Shown: in pieces, positions 3,001 to 21,365 of the stretch
Layout: every line of letters starts with the position of its first letter
Numbering within the stretch: the first letter of the stretch is position 1
IMG/VR virus record: IMGVR_UViG_3300030107_001583
Location: 1-21,365 of that record
Strand: one strand, 5' to 3'
DNA from: a virus
Length of the DNA: 21,365 bases
Notes under the pieces: generated by a model
What the model saw: the letters and a program-made list of their open reading frames with translations, nothing else
What the model was told of the DNA's origin: nothing
Database searches by the model: none
Made by a program: the position numbers and the translations under genes

Positions 3001-3260
3001 GTCCTCAATATGTTGGTGCAGAATTTGCTATAAGAATATCTGCAAACGCTGCTATGGACATGATAAAGTTAGCGGCAGGAGACCCTAATGCTGCTAAAAT
3101 TTTAAAAGATGCAGTGTTATATCCAGAAACATTAACCAAAGTTAAATTAAAAGAATTTGAAATATTAATGTATGATTTTATTGCTCTTGATTTAGCAAAA
3201 CAAGATATTAGAGAATTGCCCGTTTTTAATCAAGAACTGGTACTTGAAGGTGGATTTTAA
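3..3260 (+). CDS. Large virion-type protein, 5'-truncated by window edge
   Basis: The reading frame is open from the first bases of the window to the TAA at 3258-3260, so at least 1085 residues are visible and the true start lies to the left. The TTG at 195 is only an internal codon: the 64 codons before it contain no stop and read as ordinary protein. The visible part is highly charged, Lys/Glu-rich and mostly helical in character. It has an Ala-rich, more hydrophobic C-terminal stretch (about 2990-3120) around AARGM-type and AGDPNAAKIL-type sequence. No catalytic motif was recognised. Size, composition and position at the end of the plus-strand module suggest an internal virion or ejection protein of a podovirus, comparable in place to T7 gp15/gp16. 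That is inference only. A small Met-rich gene follows within 20 bases. Confidence 0.72.
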   Translation: MNTVRGKLFRSYVINLNAYPVFKETLGIATTASIAQAAVVEIFATTDKDDPNDKPLLNYYSANGLGALIYAFGGKYMIVNPIKGTINVIAGAGSLVSGKAPKISSLMTEVLGLSSVVGVPKQFFRDGNMLKYEQFLASKGQRLTRKQRMALNYVFRLTQNLSEEGLDLVIKSIEDYGRIERRIVDSFKNNPEIQTKVSNALRTTFASLTSMGWLKSVERSAAGNIDIRDMTSLKNVDTWVATQTEKEEALKLTSRGIDNLKNKLGSTFDTNEDVNRIVRKLEDTLAKEKLDLITSQTKAAVIVNDTLKTILKDPRSDDFTSENFKDLVNAALKLDMNIQPTLDRGDAINKVMNNVHKALLKRAEIMKTNRLSDEYLKKMDVMVEDYIESLIFRSYANAKVGYKDFDKAMESEGKSVDVLPLLKSLNEELRKLEKFKTPLSKRFSAKGKFLQGPLATQLRTSIKELAIKNLKEKFSQTTIDKLKTLHRQEFIVDKITGTKKLNPKFINENADELDIAMWYAENDEFEGFKALPSEVFDVQAVFRNYAYRTKNKDLAYEIDQFEDEIDRLITSAAGDLKNLQEPAKQIYKSNIFDRLREDGPLSTYNNSKSNVLPEKTKKGTKQETETRAVFTKQKPGEIFNPLIEKLNFYLKDSTDPLKKQAIEKEFKKIFTQLSDRKNFKEVFNLDDPESADAFNITKEIIEGMVYTKWANTFIKNAERISPKPKVSLKPGALITQDKGYNFTELNIKTLEELKELSRVTVIKNGEESTEYLVDFAKMISDEKDIVKQLGRHKVLQNQYERFKSRIENRITEVGTAAKNIAAIEDRYLERLRQFSKTTEPDDFFKKYVESGDLFGIQRLKSDLLNLGDKDLKKYEEQIDVVIRKLIIEGLLNKGNRKVVKGKFITGVDGTKSKVFEYETPEKILDAMENKDTLKILQNVMDQEHIDDLKALLQYLDYTQENVATQKLFGTTEGVATFRRIGFSIQEVLSRAFNLARGMVSPQYVGAEFAIRISANAAMDMIKLAAGDPNAAKILKDAVLYPETLTKVKLKEFEILMYDFIALDLAKQDIRELPVFNQELVLEGGF

Positions 3261-9380: not shown

Positions 9381-10904
9381 CTACAAATTAACTTCACATA
9401 AGTCAAGCCAATTTTTACCTACTTTTAATTCTATGCCAACTGGCATGTCATACTCGACTCCATACCTGTGTTTTGTCTCACTAGGTAAACATAGCATGGA
9501 GTCTTTAAGTATCTGAATACATTGATTTTTTTCGTCTGGATGAACATCAATCACAATCGAGTCGTGGACTGTGTTACAAATTACTGATTTCATATTTCTC
9601 ATTGCCTTGTCCAATTTTACCAGTGCAATGGGTAATAAATCAGCAGTTGCAAAACCTTGAACGGGGTAATTACATATAGCCGTTCTATTTGTTGCAGACC
9701 CCCACTCTGTCCATCTAGCATCAGGGAAAGCATACTCTCTTCCAGATGGTAATTTAATTACTTTATTTGTTACTGCTTGTTTCTCAAGTTCTTTGTGCCA
9801 CTCGGTAACTTGCTCATACTTTTCTTTAAATCTTTGATAATATTGTTGCTGACTACGTGTGCCACTTACCCCGCCATAAAGAGGTTTAAATGTATGTGCC
9901 TTTGCTTCTTGTCTGCTACACCCTATAACAGATGCAGTGTAGTTATGCACATCTGTTCCTTCAAGAACATCTTTGTAAACTTGAGAATCCCTTGCAAGAA
10001 AACCCGCCACCCTAAACTCTAACTGAGAGTAATCTCCCTCAAGTATAAAACCACCATCAAATCTACTTTCAACAACTTTACGTATAGCAAATGTTGAACC
10101 TCGTGGCATGTTTTGAAAGTTTGGATTACGACTAGATAGGCGACCAGTAGCCGTAACACATTGCATAAACTCTGGATGAATAAAATTATCATCATCCACA
10201 TTATTTTTCATACCCTCAACAAAAGTTGAAAGGTATGTCCGCAACGCATTGTATCTGGAGTATGCCGAACAAAACTCACGAGCATCACCTTCTAGTTCAG
10301 ATAACCTATCTTCAAGAGTTGTCTTATCTGTTTTAAAACCTGCCGCTGCCGTATCTCTAATTGTGCGGGGTATTAGTTTAAATCCTGCAACTTCACCAGT
10401 AGATGTATACACCACACCTTTACCCATGCAAGTTTTACAAATTCTTTTTGCTTTACCAAGTGAACCATCTTTTCTAGGTAGTCTAACTCTTCCTGTTCCA
10501 CCACAATTTTTACACTGGTTACCAATTGTTTTGTATACTATATCAGTCATCCTACGAACGTGTCTAACAAAGTCAGTGTGTTTCATACGAGTTCGCATTT
10601 TTGGTTTTATTGTATTACCACGCATTTCATGTCCAAGATTAAATGTAAGTGACCAAAGATTTTTATCTCTTACTTTACGTGAATACAAAAGAACACTTTT
10701 ATCATCTGGACTAGCTAGATTAATAGGTGTATCACCCATAGCTTTTTTTGCCAGTTCCCTTAACTTGTTTTCTAGTGTATTCATTTCGTTTTCATATTCT
10801 TTTTCAATTTCTTTTAATGTATCAAGATTAATTTTTAATCCGTTGTGTTCTATCCTAGATAGTGTATCAGTCATTTGAAATGATAATTTAAGAGTTTCTT
10901 TCAT
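9381..10904 (-). CDS. Family A DNA polymerase, polymerase domain with DnaJ-like zinc insert
   Basis: A 507-residue replicative polymerase lacking its own exonuclease domain, which is the gene just upstream. Motif A is DYSQLEF (catalytic Asp291). Motif B has Arg331, Lys335, Phe339 and Tyr343 with the exact Pol I spacing, so the residue equivalent to E. coli Phe762 is Phe. Motif C reads HDS (447-449) where HDE is usual. TATGRLSS and PNFQNMP precede motif A. Residues 131-163 hold two CxxCxGxG units (Cys131, 134, 156, 159), like the DnaJ zinc domain, placed in the thumb between the INLASP helix and the TDKTTLED segment. The ATG at 10904 has GAGG 6 bases upstream; a TTG at 10916 is possible. It overlaps the exonuclease gene by 17 bases. 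Confidence 0.95.
   Translation of the reverse strand: MKETLKLSFQMTDTLSRIEHNGLKINLDTLKEIEKEYENEMNTLENKLRELAKKAMGDTPINLASPDDKSVLLYSRKVRDKNLWSLTFNLGHEMRGNTIKPKMRTRMKHTDFVRHVRRMTDIVYKTIGNQCKNCGGTGRVRLPRKDGSLGKAKRICKTCMGKGVVYTSTGEVAGFKLIPRTIRDTAAAGFKTDKTTLEDRLSELEGDAREFCSAYSRYNALRTYLSTFVEGMKNNVDDDNFIHPEFMQCVTATGRLSSRNPNFQNMPRGSTFAIRKVVESRFDGGFILEGDYSQLEFRVAGFLARDSQVYKDVLEGTDVHNYTASVIGCSRQEAKAHTFKPLYGGVSGTRSQQQYYQRFKEKYEQVTEWHKELEKQAVTNKVIKLPSGREYAFPDARWTEWGSATNRTAICNYPVQGFATADLLPIALVKLDKAMRNMKSVICNTVHDSIVIDVHPDEKNQCIQILKDSMLCLPSETKHRYGVEYDMPVGIELKVGKNWLDLCEVNL
10416..10514 (-). other. DnaJ-like zinc-binding module inside DNA polymerase
   Basis: These bases encode CKNCGGTG and CKTCMGKG, separated by a short basic loop. 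Each has the CxxCxGxG form of the DnaJ cysteine-rich domain; two units would bind one zinc ion. DnaJ itself has four such units, so this is half a domain. I recall that a partial DnaJ central domain was described for the polymerase of SAR116 phage HMO-2011. T7 polymerase also has a thumb insertion, which binds host thioredoxin. By analogy a clamp, processivity or partner-binding role is possible. Confidence 0.8.
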
Positions 10905-11451
10905 ACAATTCCTCAAAAGTTAAACCTAAAGATTCTAATTGTTTTACTGCAACCTGCTCTGTTGCAATCACATCCGCCTTACCATACTCCTCTACAATCT
11001 CAGCAGGGATTTCATAAAACGTTTTACCATCTTTGAGATACGGTGCAACCAAGTCTGTTTCTTTTTGGGTAACGTTATAGCGTTTTGCAAGAGCATCAAG
11101 TGCCAAAGACCAACGCCTTCCTTTCGCTTTGATGTATTCCGCAACCATCGTATCATAAATCTCTCCCTCATAAACAAACCCACATGAACGCAACCAAGTT
11201 ATGTCAAATTTTATATTTTGTCCAACAAGCACATCAGTATTGTCAAGGTCTTTTTGTATACGTTCGACTGTTGTTGACTCATACCAGTTCTTTTTATCTT
11301 TGTGATAGAAAAATTCGTAGTTAACATTTTCGTTTAAAAGCCACTTCCAACCAACTGATACCAAACGGTTATTAAAGTAAGGCAGAGCAGTTGTGCCACC
11401 CGATAATTTTTCTTTGTGTGTTGTTTCAACGTCTAGGGTAAGAATCTTCAT
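10888..11451 (-). CDS. 3'-5' exonuclease (proofreading half of DNA polymerase)
   Basis: A 187-residue DnaQ-like exonuclease of the DEDDy type. Asp7 and Glu9 lie in LTLDVETT, Asp83 in GQNIKFDITW, and the last Asp in YGKADVIAT with the Tyr four residues before it. It matches the proofreading domain that is normally the N-terminal part of phage family A polymerases, and ends (LGLTFEELYERN) just where that domain would join the polymerase domain. The next gene supplies the polymerase domain, with its own ribosome binding site and ATG 17 bases inside this one. The ATG at 11451 has GGAG about 10 bases upstream. The product likely works in complex with the separate polymerase. Confidence 0.92.
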   Translation of the reverse strand: MKILTLDVETTHKEKLSGGTTALPYFNNRLVSVGWKWLLNENVNYEFFYHKDKKNWYESTTVERIQKDLDNTDVLVGQNIKFDITWLRSCGFVYEGEIYDTMVAEYIKAKGRRWSLALDALAKRYNVTQKETDLVAPYLKDGKTFYEIPAEIVEEYGKADVIATEQVAVKQLESLGLTFEELYERNS

Positions 11452-18800: not shown

Positions 18801-19829
18801 ATGAACTATATAAATCAAAACTTTACTAAAGAAGTAAATACTCATAAAGATTATACAGATGTTAGTTTTTATGAAGATAATTCCAAGATAACTAAAGTTA
18901 ATCTTACCGCAGAAATACCAGTTAACACTAATATTAAATGCGTGGATGGTTTAAACCATACTCAAGAATATTTGGAAACTAAAAATCTTAAGGGATATTT
19001 TGGTTTATACAATGCTAGTTTGGATAGGTTACTGATTACTCGACCAGTAAGTGAAACTTATAGATTAATTCCGCATCACGAATTATTTGGTGAACAAGCT
19101 AAGATACTAAGTCAATCTGATTTGCCTTTAGATAATATAACAGTAGTTGACCAGTTATATAAAGACGGGTTACAAGCTCATAGAATTATTTATTTTCATG
19201 ACCTTGAAAAATCAGTTGGAGAAAAACAAGATAAAGTTTTATGCAGAATTGATATATTTAATTCTTGTGATATGTCTTGGAGCTTCCAAGTTTTTTCTGG
19301 TGCGTATCGTAATTTATGTAGGAATACAATGGTATTTGGCGGACAAAAATCTTACCATCAAATAGCAAAACATACTCGTAACTTATCGACTACCGCTTTA
19401 ATGACTAAGGCAAGTATTGGTTTGGAACATTGGACTAGCCAATCAGAACAGATGGATAACTGGGTTAATTCTAAAATGGATATTGAACAGTTTGGAAATG
19501 TCCTTAAAGAAACCATTTGTAAAAAGAAAGGTAAATCTGCAGAGTTAAATCTAACAAACCCAGTTAATGAAACTAAGCTTAATTATTTACTGGATAGATT
19601 TCAAAAAGAACAAGTTGAACTTGGGGAAACTCTTTGGGCGGGTTACAATGCTTTGACACATTGGGCAACCCATACTGATGAAACTATTGAAAAAGAAATT
19701 GACAATAAGCTTGTTAAAATTCGTTCGGGGAAATCAACCGCAGATAAACCAAGTGTTCAGCGAACTCGAAATGATGAAGTAAGAACTGTTATTGAATGTG
19801 ACAGTTGGAAAACATTGGAAGTAGCTTAA
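18801..19829 (+). CDS. DUF932-like phage/plasmid protein
   Basis: A 342-residue protein of the DUF932 type found on phages and plasmids. Family-like segments are the early YFGLYNASLDRLL, the middle YRNLCRNTMVFGG followed by a helical stretch with HTRNL, and LWAGYNALTHWATH near residue 285. Its function is not established. It is often expressed early and lies among small genes. The ATG follows GAAAGGG after a 40-base AT-rich gap. A 30-residue membrane peptide begins one base after its stop. Confidence 0.75.
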   Translation: MNYINQNFTKEVNTHKDYTDVSFYEDNSKITKVNLTAEIPVNTNIKCVDGLNHTQEYLETKNLKGYFGLYNASLDRLLITRPVSETYRLIPHHELFGEQAKILSQSDLPLDNITVVDQLYKDGLQAHRIIYFHDLEKSVGEKQDKVLCRIDIFNSCDMSWSFQVFSGAYRNLCRNTMVFGGQKSYHQIAKHTRNLSTTALMTKASIGLEHWTSQSEQMDNWVNSKMDIEQFGNVLKETICKKKGKSAELNLTNPVNETKLNYLLDRFQKEQVELGETLWAGYNALTHWATHTDETIEKEIDNKLVKIRSGKSTADKPSVQRTRNDEVRTVIECDSWKTLEVA

Positions 19830-19937: not shown

Positions 19938-20291
19938 ATGAAAGCTATAAACATAGATACTACTATTGACGCATTGGAAACTGTCAGCAACAATGCAAGA
20001 CAAAAACACAACACCAGTCGTTCAGCAATTCGCATACATGAACTGACGGTGAACTTGTCAAAAGCTTGGCGGAAATATAAAGTCAATAGTCAAATGTTCG
20101 CACACAAAGAACTTGTTTTATTTGTCATAAAAAATTCAAGTAATGGTTTAAAATTTAATTCTATTGTTCGGCGGTCTGGATTACCAGTCGCAGAAGTAAA
20201 ATATATTTTAACCGATTTAAACGAACTTAATATTATTTCTTCAATTCGAAATAAATACGAATTAAAAAATGGTATAAAAATAATATCTTGA
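19938..20291 (+). CDS. Winged-helix-like hypothetical protein
   Basis: A 117-residue basic protein. The C-terminal half (about 60-117) looks like a winged helix: LKFNSIVRRSGLPVAEV as a helix-turn-helix, then LTDLNELNIISS and a short hairpin around NKYELKNG. This suggests a DNA-binding regulator, not proven. The ATG at 19938 is chosen because AAAGGGGAAAAC stands just before it. An ATG at 19917 in the same frame would lie inside the membrane peptide gene. It is followed by the 20288-20353 promoter and terminator element. Confidence 0.6.
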   Translation: MKAINIDTTIDALETVSNNARQKHNTSRSAIRIHELTVNLSKAWRKYKVNSQMFAHKELVLFVIKNSSNGLKFNSIVRRSGLPVAEVKYILTDLNELNIISSIRNKYELKNGIKIIS

Positions 20292-20316
20292 CATCTAAAA
20301 AAATATGTAATCTAAT
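20288..20316 (+). promoter_or_regulatory. Strong sigma70-type promoter
   Basis: TTGACA at 20288-20293, a 17-base spacer and TCTAAT at 20311-20316 (five of six matches to TATAAT). It is the best promoter in the window. It begins in the last codons of the upstream gene and runs straight into a terminator hairpin. It would drive the last two genes. Confidence 0.68.
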
Positions 20317-20317
20317 T

Positions 20318-20353
20318 GGGTTAGGTTAGAAATTAATCTAACCCTTTTTTTTT
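20318..20353 (+). terminator. Rho-independent terminator nested with a promoter
   Basis: GGGTTAGGTTA (20318-20328) pairs with TAATCTAACCC (20334-20344), an 11-pair stem with one G-U and a 5-base loop, followed by nine T. It is placed to stop transcripts coming from the upstream genes. The stem starts 2 bases after the -10 box of the promoter, so transcripts made there would begin inside the left arm and form only a shorter 6-pair hairpin. Confidence 0.8.
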
Positions 20354-20382
20354 AAAAGTAACATTAGAAAGGTATTTTAAAA

Positions 20383-20799
20383 ATGGAAATTAAAAAACAA
20401 GTATATACTCGAAAGTATAATAAAGACACCCAAACATTTGAAACTATTGGCGGTCAATTAATCGAGATGCAATTCACAGTATTTGAGAATTTTACAATCT
20501 GTAAATTGCGTATTTTTGATGAGAATAATAACGTCATTTTAACACTTGAATTAAATACGACACCTGACCAAGTTATAACTTGTTTGCCAACAAGGTTAGC
20601 AACAACTATATCTAAAACCAGAAGAAAGCATTTTAAACACGCTGAAGAGATGGGAAGGTTTCATTTCTATACTTCGACTAAGTGGGGAACACCTGATAGA
20701 AAGCTCTGGGATAATGGTGAGATTAACAAGTTTAAAAAAGACTTGGATAATAAACAGATTGACCTTGAAGAGTTAATAGCAGAAAAAAAGGCGGGTTAA
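20383..20799 (+). CDS. Hypothetical protein
   Basis: A 138-residue protein with a beta-rich first half (QFTVFENFTICKLRIFDENN) and a basic, helical second half (SKTRRKHFKHAEEMGRF), ending in an acidic LDNKQIDLEELIAEKK helix. No family was recognised. GAAAGG lies about 10 bases before the ATG. It is the first gene after the nested promoter and terminator. Confidence 0.6.
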   Translation: MEIKKQVYTRKYNKDTQTFETIGGQLIEMQFTVFENFTICKLRIFDENNNVILTLELNTTPDQVITCLPTRLATTISKTRRKHFKHAEEMGRFHFYTSTKWGTPDRKLWDNGEINKFKKDLDNKQIDLEELIAEKKAG

Positions 20800-20800
20800 T

Positions 20801-21100
20801 ATGTTTGCATTAAAGAAAGTAGAAAACTTTAAAAATTGGAAGGGTCGAGCAATTCCAAACCAATTTATTATATCAGAGAGAGAAGGGAATATAACCCGCC
20901 AGACTTTTCAAAGCTATGAAACTATTATAGCGGTTAAAGTTCAAAATGATGAAATGGACGCAACATATTTAGATTGTAATTGTTGGGATTATTCTTCAAC
21001 TACTAGCCGTTATAGAAATCAGTTTTTAGGCGAGAACAGAAAAGAAACTGAAAGAAAAATAAAATCTGGCGAATATAAAATATGTGATTTAAATAAATAA
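20801..21100 (+). CDS. Hypothetical protein
   Basis: A 99-residue protein. A strand segment around YETIIAVKV leads to TYLDCNCWDYSSTTSRYRNQFLG, an odd Cys/Trp/Tyr/Ser stretch. The C-terminal part is basic, and no known motif was found. The start is one base after the previous stop, and the ribosome binding site (GGCGGG) is poor, so translational coupling is likely. The stop is followed by a terminator. Confidence 0.58.
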   Translation: MFALKKVENFKNWKGRAIPNQFIISEREGNITRQTFQSYETIIAVKVQNDEMDATYLDCNCWDYSSTTSRYRNQFLGENRKETERKIKSGEYKICDLNK

Positions 21101-21121: not shown

Positions 21122-21156
21122 AACCCGCTTAGCTTCATAGTTAGGCGGGTTTTTTT
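21122..21156 (+). terminator. Rho-independent terminator of the rightward genes
   Basis: AACCCGCTTAG (21122-21132) pairs with TTAGGCGGGTT (21141-21151) with two G-U pairs, followed by a run of T. A small CTTTC/GAAAG hairpin at 21107-21120 lies just before it. It comes 22 bases after the last stop and should end the rightward operon. Confidence 0.85.
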
Positions 21157-21284
21157 ATGCCAACAAGCCAAAATAATATATAACTTGTTATTATCATTGG
21201 TTTTATTGTTTGGTCGTCTGGTGGGATTTAAACGCAACATGAACATCAAATATCAATATGGCGGGTTAACTTGTATGATTAACT

Positions 21285-21305
21285 AAATGACAAATGACAA
21301 ATGAC
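21285..21305 (+). repeat. Three tandem AAATGAC heptamers
   Basis: AAATGAC occurs three times head to tail without a mismatch (21285, 21292, 21299). Short perfect tandem repeats in a non-coding region can be iterons or regulator sites. Confidence 0.85.
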
Positions 21306-21307
21306 AT

Positions 21308-21319
21308 ACACGGGCGTGT
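21308..21319. repeat. Short inverted repeat ACACG-GG-CGTGT
   Basis: A perfect 5-base inverted repeat around GG, GC-rich within AT-rich DNA and directly after the heptamer array. It could be an operator half-site pair or the base of a small hairpin. It could also be chance. Confidence 0.5.
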
Positions 21320-21365
21320 GTGAGATGCGTTAATAGTTTAATTGATTGGTTTTATTGGCGGGTTG

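What the first reader, a model, noticed from the sequence alone, without database searches (positions are those of the whole stretch)
20288..20353. Promoter nested into a terminator: insulated relay or attenuator
A near-consensus promoter ends 2 bases before an 11-pair terminator stem with nine T. Transcripts from upstream contain the whole stem and should stop. Transcripts started here would begin near 20323, inside the left arm, and could form only a 6-pair hairpin using the second copy of the overlapping GGTTAG repeat. One element would thus end one unit and start the next, or the alternative hairpin could act as an attenuator or a 5' protective cap on the mRNA.
Basis: partly seen in the sequence, partly recalled or inferred. 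Interest (0 to 1): 0.6.

Follow-up and report, generated by a model that had tools for sequence, protein, structure and literature searches.

The report
Promoter fused into a phage terminator
In abundant ocean phages, probably infecting SAR11 bacteria, one short DNA element appears to end one gene group's transcript and start the next, because transcripts begun there lack part of the stop hairpin; comparison across many relatives supports this, but no RNA data yet do.

Summary
A promoter-like pair (TTGACA-17-TCTAAT, 11 of 12 consensus bases) ends one base before an 11-pair hairpin followed by nine T. It lies between two same-strand genes of an HMO-2011-type marine phage. All 29 relatives whose DNA covers the site keep promoter and hairpin in the same register, with changes that preserve pairing in both the full stem and a shorter hairpin available to locally started RNA. 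The cultured pelagiphage HTVC033P has two unrelated hairpins in the same geometry, and about 40 of its metagenomic relatives show six hairpin clusters. There the -10 box falls 1-3 bases before the stem, far beyond chance. HTVC033P also uses a second geometry with the -35 box inside the hairpin.

Best explanation: upstream polymerases make the whole stem and stop. Polymerases starting here begin about five bases inside the left arm, lack its outer pairs, pass through, and make mRNA starting with a small hairpin. The relay reading is supported, the 5' hairpin plausible, the attenuator less likely. Start sites and termination are inferred; no RNA ends were available. Precedents for the principle exist (frd-ampC, penA), so this is a new variant of a known kind.

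The parts
19941..20291 (+). Upstream gene (116 aa, or 124 aa from 19917), probably a small winged-helix protein; its stop codon overlaps the -35 box
   Evidence: ORF; only sub-threshold Pfam matches, several of them winged-helix families
20288..20293 (+). -35 box TTGACA
   Evidence: Sequence; TTGACN, TTGATT or TTGCAT at the same place in relatives
20311..20316 (+). -10 box TCTAAT (TATAAT or TTTAAT in relatives)
   Evidence: Sequence; conserved position 1-2 bases before the stem
20318..20344 (+). Full 11-pair terminator stem-loop, formed only by RNA coming from upstream
   Evidence: Fold; covariation and full pairing in 9 aligned variants
20323..20323 (+). Predicted transcription start (A), five bases inside the left arm
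   Evidence: Inference: seventh base after the -10 box; no RNA data
20324..20343 (+). Alternative 7-pair hairpin at the 5' end of locally started RNA
   Evidence: Fold; paired in all 9 aligned variants with two doubly changed pairs
20345..20353 (+). T-run (nine T), predicted release site for upstream transcripts
   Evidence: Sequence; at least four T after the stem in all relatives of this family
20366..20372 (+). Likely ribosome-binding site AGAAAGG, 10 bases before the ATG
   Evidence: Sequence
20383..20799 (+). First gene of the downstream unit (138 aa, unknown function)
   Evidence: ORF; no PHROGs or Pfam match
20801..21100 (+). Second gene of the downstream unit (99 aa, phrog_21575-like, unknown function)
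   Evidence: ORF and PHROGs match
21122..21156 (+). Ordinary strong terminator closing the downstream unit; no promoter fused to it
   Evidence: Terminator scan

Best explanation
The element works as a one-way relay made of a terminator and a promoter sharing the same bases. Host RNA polymerase arriving from the upstream genes transcribes the whole hairpin and is released in the T-run (inferred from structure). The sigma-70-type promoter just before the stem starts a new RNA about five bases inside the left arm (inferred). That RNA lacks the outer pairs and cannot form the full terminator, so transcription continues into the 138-aa and 99-aa genes. The truncated arm folds into a smaller hairpin at the extreme 5' end of the new mRNA, which may also slow its decay (speculative). 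The geometry, its conservation and its recurrence are shown; start site, termination and stability effects are inferred.
For: (1) All 29 relatives with sequence over the site keep promoter-then-hairpin in the same register although promoter, spacer and flanking genes diverge; the upstream protein falls to 33% identity between contigs with the identical hairpin. (2) Outer pairs 1-27 and 4-24, upstream of the predicted start, show changes on both sides; likewise outer pairs of two unrelated HTVC033P-type hairpins. Such pairing matters only in RNA that starts upstream. (3) HTVC033P carries two non-homologous hairpins in the same geometry, conserved in most of about 40 relatives and joined by further hairpin families. 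(4) In that group the -10 end lies 1-3 bases before the stem for 23 of 55 distinct hairpins, in 6 of 16 clusters, against a background of 0.02% per position (binomial P about 2e-14 with clusters taken as independent, an idealisation). (5) Truncating at the predicted start cuts the hairpin from -13..-18 to about -7..-10 kcal/mol and lowers a terminator score in all six cases, from +30 to -22 in the window. (6) A promoter placed close to a terminator was reported to interfere with that terminator (PMC6045580).
Against: No RNA 5' or 3' ends. The window's -10 lacks its usual second-position A. In the window's family the short hairpin still sits next to the T-run, so some termination of the element's own transcripts is possible. 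For the commonest hairpin variant (few T) the terminator score contrast is modest, -4 versus -15. Genome compaction alone could bring promoters and terminators together, although it would not predict such a fixed register.
Confidence: 0.7

Rival explanations
1. Attenuator: most polymerases starting at this promoter also stop in the T-run because of the short hairpin, yielding an RNA of about 30 bases, and the downstream genes need an anti-termination factor or particular conditions, as in E. coli ampC.
For: The short hairpin covaries and stays paired in every aligned variant, and in this family it lies 0-1 base from the T-run.
Against: In the HTVC033P-type elements the truncated hairpin is separated from the T-run by 2-4 bases and scores poorly; the stem is short and AT-rich; no switch partner was identified.
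Confidence: 0.15
2. DNA operator: the inverted repeat overlapping the start is bound by a repressor, for instance the winged-helix protein encoded just upstream.
For: The neighbouring gene looks like a winged-helix protein (sub-threshold) and the repeat overlaps the predicted start.
Against: Identical neighbour proteins (L020 and L010; L025 and L026) sit next to hairpins that differ at four positions or are nearly replaced, and proteins 33% identical sit next to the same hairpin. Many pairs are G-U, which breaks DNA symmetry but not RNA pairing. A T-run always follows.
Confidence: 0.06
3. Compaction only: promoter and terminator are both real and merely overlap to save space, with no functional coupling.
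For: The genomes are compact, and three arrangements exist (start in the stem, -35 in the stem, promoter just after the T-run).
Against: The register is too narrow (-10 end 1-3 bases before the stem, nearly always 2) and keeps the start inside the left arm, exactly what lets local transcripts escape.
Confidence: 0.15
4. Polymerase hand-over: polymerases terminating here stay on the DNA, bind sigma and restart at the overlapping promoter, so upstream traffic feeds the downstream unit. This would be an addition to the relay, not an alternative to it.
For: Bacterial polymerase usually stays on DNA after intrinsic termination and can restart nearby (PMC6978322, PMC6978380). In the second HTVC033P geometry the release site lies within the promoter spacer.
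Against: Not tested in these phages or hosts; the restarts reported in PMC6978322 were usually in the reverse direction. It is not needed for the relay.
Confidence: 0.15

Closest known systems
E. coli frd-ampC overlap
   Same: The downstream promoter lies in the end of the upstream operon, and one hairpin next to it terminates that operon (stated in PMC6045580).
   Different: From general knowledge, the ampC start lies before the hairpin, so ampC transcripts contain all of it and are attenuated; here the predicted start is inside the left arm.
Burkholderia nlpD1-penA terminator with a mutant promoter beside it
   Same: A promoter immediately next to a terminator; promoter placement close to it interferes with terminator function (PMC6045580).
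   Different: A mutation in single isolates with an unmapped start site, not a conserved element; here the arrangement is fixed across many phages and repeated within a genome.
5'-terminal stabilising stem-loops (ompA, papA type)
   Same: The predicted mRNA starts with a hairpin 0-1 base from its 5' end; RNase E is much slower on base-paired 5' ends (review PMC3997798).
   Different: Those hairpins are not halves of a terminator, and stability was not measured here.
T7 and lambda terminators
   Same: Intrinsic hairpin-plus-T terminators in phage genomes.
   Different: None of their strong terminators has a fused promoter in this scan.

Membership tests
Intrinsic terminator | GC-containing stem-loop followed directly by a T-run | tested here: met
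Intrinsic terminator | Pairing conserved by compensatory change | tested here: met
   modest numbers of independent changes
Intrinsic terminator | Transcripts actually end in the T-run | not testable with these tools
   No RNA 3' ends available
Sigma-70-type promoter | -35 and -10 hexamers at 16-18 spacing | tested here: met
   TTGACA-17-TCTAAT here; TATAAT in most relatives
Sigma-70-type promoter | A at the second position of the -10 (strongly preferred, not absolute) | tested here: inconclusive
   C in the window, T in some relatives, A in most
Sigma-70-type promoter | Transcripts start about 7 bases after the -10 | not testable with these tools
   No RNA 5' ends available
Attenuator of the ampC type | Own transcripts contain the whole terminator hairpin | tested here: not met
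   Predicted start 20323 lies inside the left arm; depends on the predicted start
Rfam RNA families | Match to a known RNA family at the element | tested here: not met
   No match at 20288-20353 up to E = 1
HMO-2011-type phages | Pol I-type DNA polymerase, DnaB-like helicase and primase related to the HMO-2011 group | tested here: met
   Best polymerase matches HTVC033P 48% and HMO-2011 43%, then CRP phages; helicase family match; no whole-genome phylogeny made

The most novel reading that the evidence does not exclude
SAR11-type HMO-2011 phages organise their early genes as a chain of fused terminator-promoters in two fixed geometries (start inside the stem, or -35 inside the stem). Each unit is thereby isolated from its neighbour, and polymerases released at one terminator may be re-used at the promoter they are sitting on.
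Probability: 0.35. Interest if true: 0.72.

Novelty: new variant of a known kind. Interest (0 to 1): 0.52.

Why it matters
It gives a simple way for a phage without an identified RNA polymerase of its own to keep neighbouring units independent with almost no DNA: the start inside the stop hairpin makes the stop apply only to upstream traffic. HTVC033P-type phages are reported among the most abundant pelagiphages (PMC9038755), and the HMO-2011-type paper never mentions promoters or terminators. The parts are short and portable, so they would make compact genetic insulators, and the second geometry offers a natural test of polymerase re-use after termination.

Tried and rejected
Rfam: nothing at the element. 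One bacterial genome hit for the hairpin pattern (L076, Desulfobacterales MAG): no T-run or similar context, taken as chance. Further copies in the same phage: none in six records. An operator for the neighbouring winged-helix protein: rejected by the mismatch between protein and hairpin variation. An N4-type hairpin promoter was considered and set aside: the hairpin lies at and after the start, not upstream. The same fused geometry in HMO-2011, four CRP phages, HTVC010P, HTVC011P, HTVC019P, T7 and lambda: none found. P-SSP7 was fetched but not scanned. Literature searches for promoters embedded in terminators found only the penA/ampC type of precedent; the library is open-access only.

Full report
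WHAT IS THERE. The window is part of a 35,088-base virus record. At 20288-20353 lie TTGACA, a 17-base spacer, TCTAAT, one T, then GGGTTAGGTTAGAAATTAATCTAACCC and nine T. The stem has 11 pairs (-14.2 kcal/mol with its tail). The -35 overlaps the stop codon of a 116-124-aa ORF, and the next ORF starts at 20383 with AGAAAGG ten bases upstream. The mismatch in the -10 is at its second base, so the promoter is near-consensus by count but not at the most critical position; the simple scanner did not list it.

WHICH PHAGE. The DNA polymerase is closest to the HMO-2011 group: Pelagibacter phage HTVC033P (48%), Puniceispirillum phage HMO-2011 (43%), then roseophages. G+C is 33%, like the HMO-2011-type subgroups thought to infect SAR11 (31.9-35.4%, PMC9038755). 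A SAR11 host is therefore likely but inferred. No phage RNA polymerase was noticed, but no dedicated search for one was made and the record is incomplete, so the use of host polymerase is assumed. The genes upstream include a DUF932 protein; terminase-like genes follow downstream.

CONSERVATION. The DUF932 gene brought in 31 loci. All 29 that cover the site carry a promoter followed after 1-2 bases by the hairpin and a T-run. A pattern scan found 42 contigs, giving 31 distinct variants with the other loci; because that pattern limits which variants can be found, the unbiased set is the stronger evidence. The element occurs once in each of six records checked. Most members read TTGCAT-18-TATAAT, others TTGACN-17-TTTAAT or TCTAAT, in the same register. 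The hairpin is unchanged where the upstream protein is only 33% identical.

TWO STRUCTURES. In nine aligned hairpins the full stem is 100% paired, with two pairs changed on both sides (1-27 and 4-24) and several G-U intermediates. The 5' bases of both pairs lie upstream of the predicted start, so only RNA from upstream can form them. The short hairpin is also 100% paired, with two pairs changed on both sides. In GGTTAAG/CTTAGCC versus GGTTAGA/TCTAGCC the left-arm changes fall in the loop of the full stem but in paired positions of the short one. All eight non-consensus variants keep both structures, while random transitions of the same number would do so 8-47% of the time each. The evidence for the short hairpin beyond the long one is suggestive rather than overwhelming, since the variants are few and related. 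One divergent member, L026, has a largely replaced hairpin that still allows a long and a short fold.

RECURRENCE WITH UNRELATED SEQUENCES. HTVC033P has TTGACA-17-TATAAC before a 13-pair hairpin at 2097 and TTGACA-17-TATTAT before another at 3134. The hairpins do not resemble that of the window, nor do the genes flanking the second one. Fifty-four contigs encode relatives of the gene after 3134. Nearly all with upstream sequence keep that element, some with entirely different stems such as GATACTACTG...GGTAGTATC, a few of them with a shorter T-run, and further families appear elsewhere in them. Covariation supports both HTVC033P families, including outer pairs. Against 55 distinct terminators in 16 clusters, promoter positions form two sharp peaks: -10 end 1-3 bases before the stem (23 hairpins, 6 clusters), and -10 end 42-46 bases after the stem start, which puts TTGACA inside the hairpin and the T-run in the spacer. 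A promoter of that score occurs at 0.02% of positions. The clusters are made by a crude similarity cut-off and some may share ancestry, so the binomial P is an idealisation; the narrow register is the robust point. In HTVC033P all four strong rightward terminators are fused to a promoter, two in each geometry, and the leftward one is not. HMO-2011, four CRP phages, three other pelagiphages, T7 and lambda show none.

MECHANISM. With +1 placed seven bases after the -10, the start falls five bases inside the left arm in the window. Locally made RNA loses the outer pairs. A terminator score (d'Aubenton-Carafa form, written from memory) falls from +30 to -22 in the window, from +28 to -37 and +15 to -39 in HTVC033P, and from -4 to -15 in the commonest family variant. 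So upstream transcripts should stop while local transcripts pass. A reported precedent has promoter placement near a terminator interfering with its function (PMC6045580). The new mRNA would begin with a hairpin 0-1 base from its end; base-paired 5' ends are poor RNase E substrates (PMC3997798), so protection is possible but unmeasured. Because polymerase usually remains on DNA after intrinsic termination and can restart nearby (PMC6978322, PMC6978380), hand-over at the element is an attractive but untested extension.

RIVALS. An attenuator is less likely, because in HTVC033P-type elements the truncated hairpin no longer touches the T-run, but it remains possible for the window's family. An operator for the adjacent winged-helix protein is unlikely: identical proteins accompany different hairpins and very different proteins accompany the same one, and G-U pairs are common. 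Compaction alone does not explain the fixed register.

KNOWN OR NEW. Bifunctional promoter-terminator junctions are known in principle (frd-ampC; nlpD1-penA). What appears new is a conserved, repeated phage element with the start placed inside the stop hairpin in a fixed register, plus a second geometry with the -35 inside the hairpin. I found no description in an open-access full-text library; subscription papers were not searchable. Verdict: a new variant of a known kind, well supported by comparison, without RNA evidence.

Noticed in passing
HTVC033P (L073) 613-642 and 1245-1275, with relatives in L083, L089, L091 and L153: A second fused geometry: TTGACA lies inside the terminator loop or right arm and the T-run forms part of the promoter spacer (-10 end 42-46 bases after the stem start).
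   Followed up: partly
L151 (G007) around 12446 and 10510, - strand: A third arrangement: a TTGACA promoter begins within about 10 bases after the terminator T-run.
   Followed up: partly
window 9381-10916 and 10888-11451, - strand; L068 11368-13450: DNA polymerase is split into an exonuclease ORF and a polymerase ORF overlapping by about 30-40 bases, conserved in a relative, while HTVC033P has one fused gene; a natural split or programmed frameshift.
   Followed up: no
window 20383-21100: Two small downstream genes of unknown function (138 and 99 aa), kept in order in relatives with divergent first genes (METKTYL and MNNDFQT types).
   Followed up: partly
window 21157-21365 and on to about 21787 of the record: About 600 bases without recognised genes between the strong terminator at 21122 and the terminase-like region, with repeats of GGCGGGTT.
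   Followed up: no
window 18801-19829: DUF932 protein (PF06067, E 1e-20), strongly conserved (about 74-88% identity) in these marine contigs and almost absent from annotated phages.
   Followed up: partly
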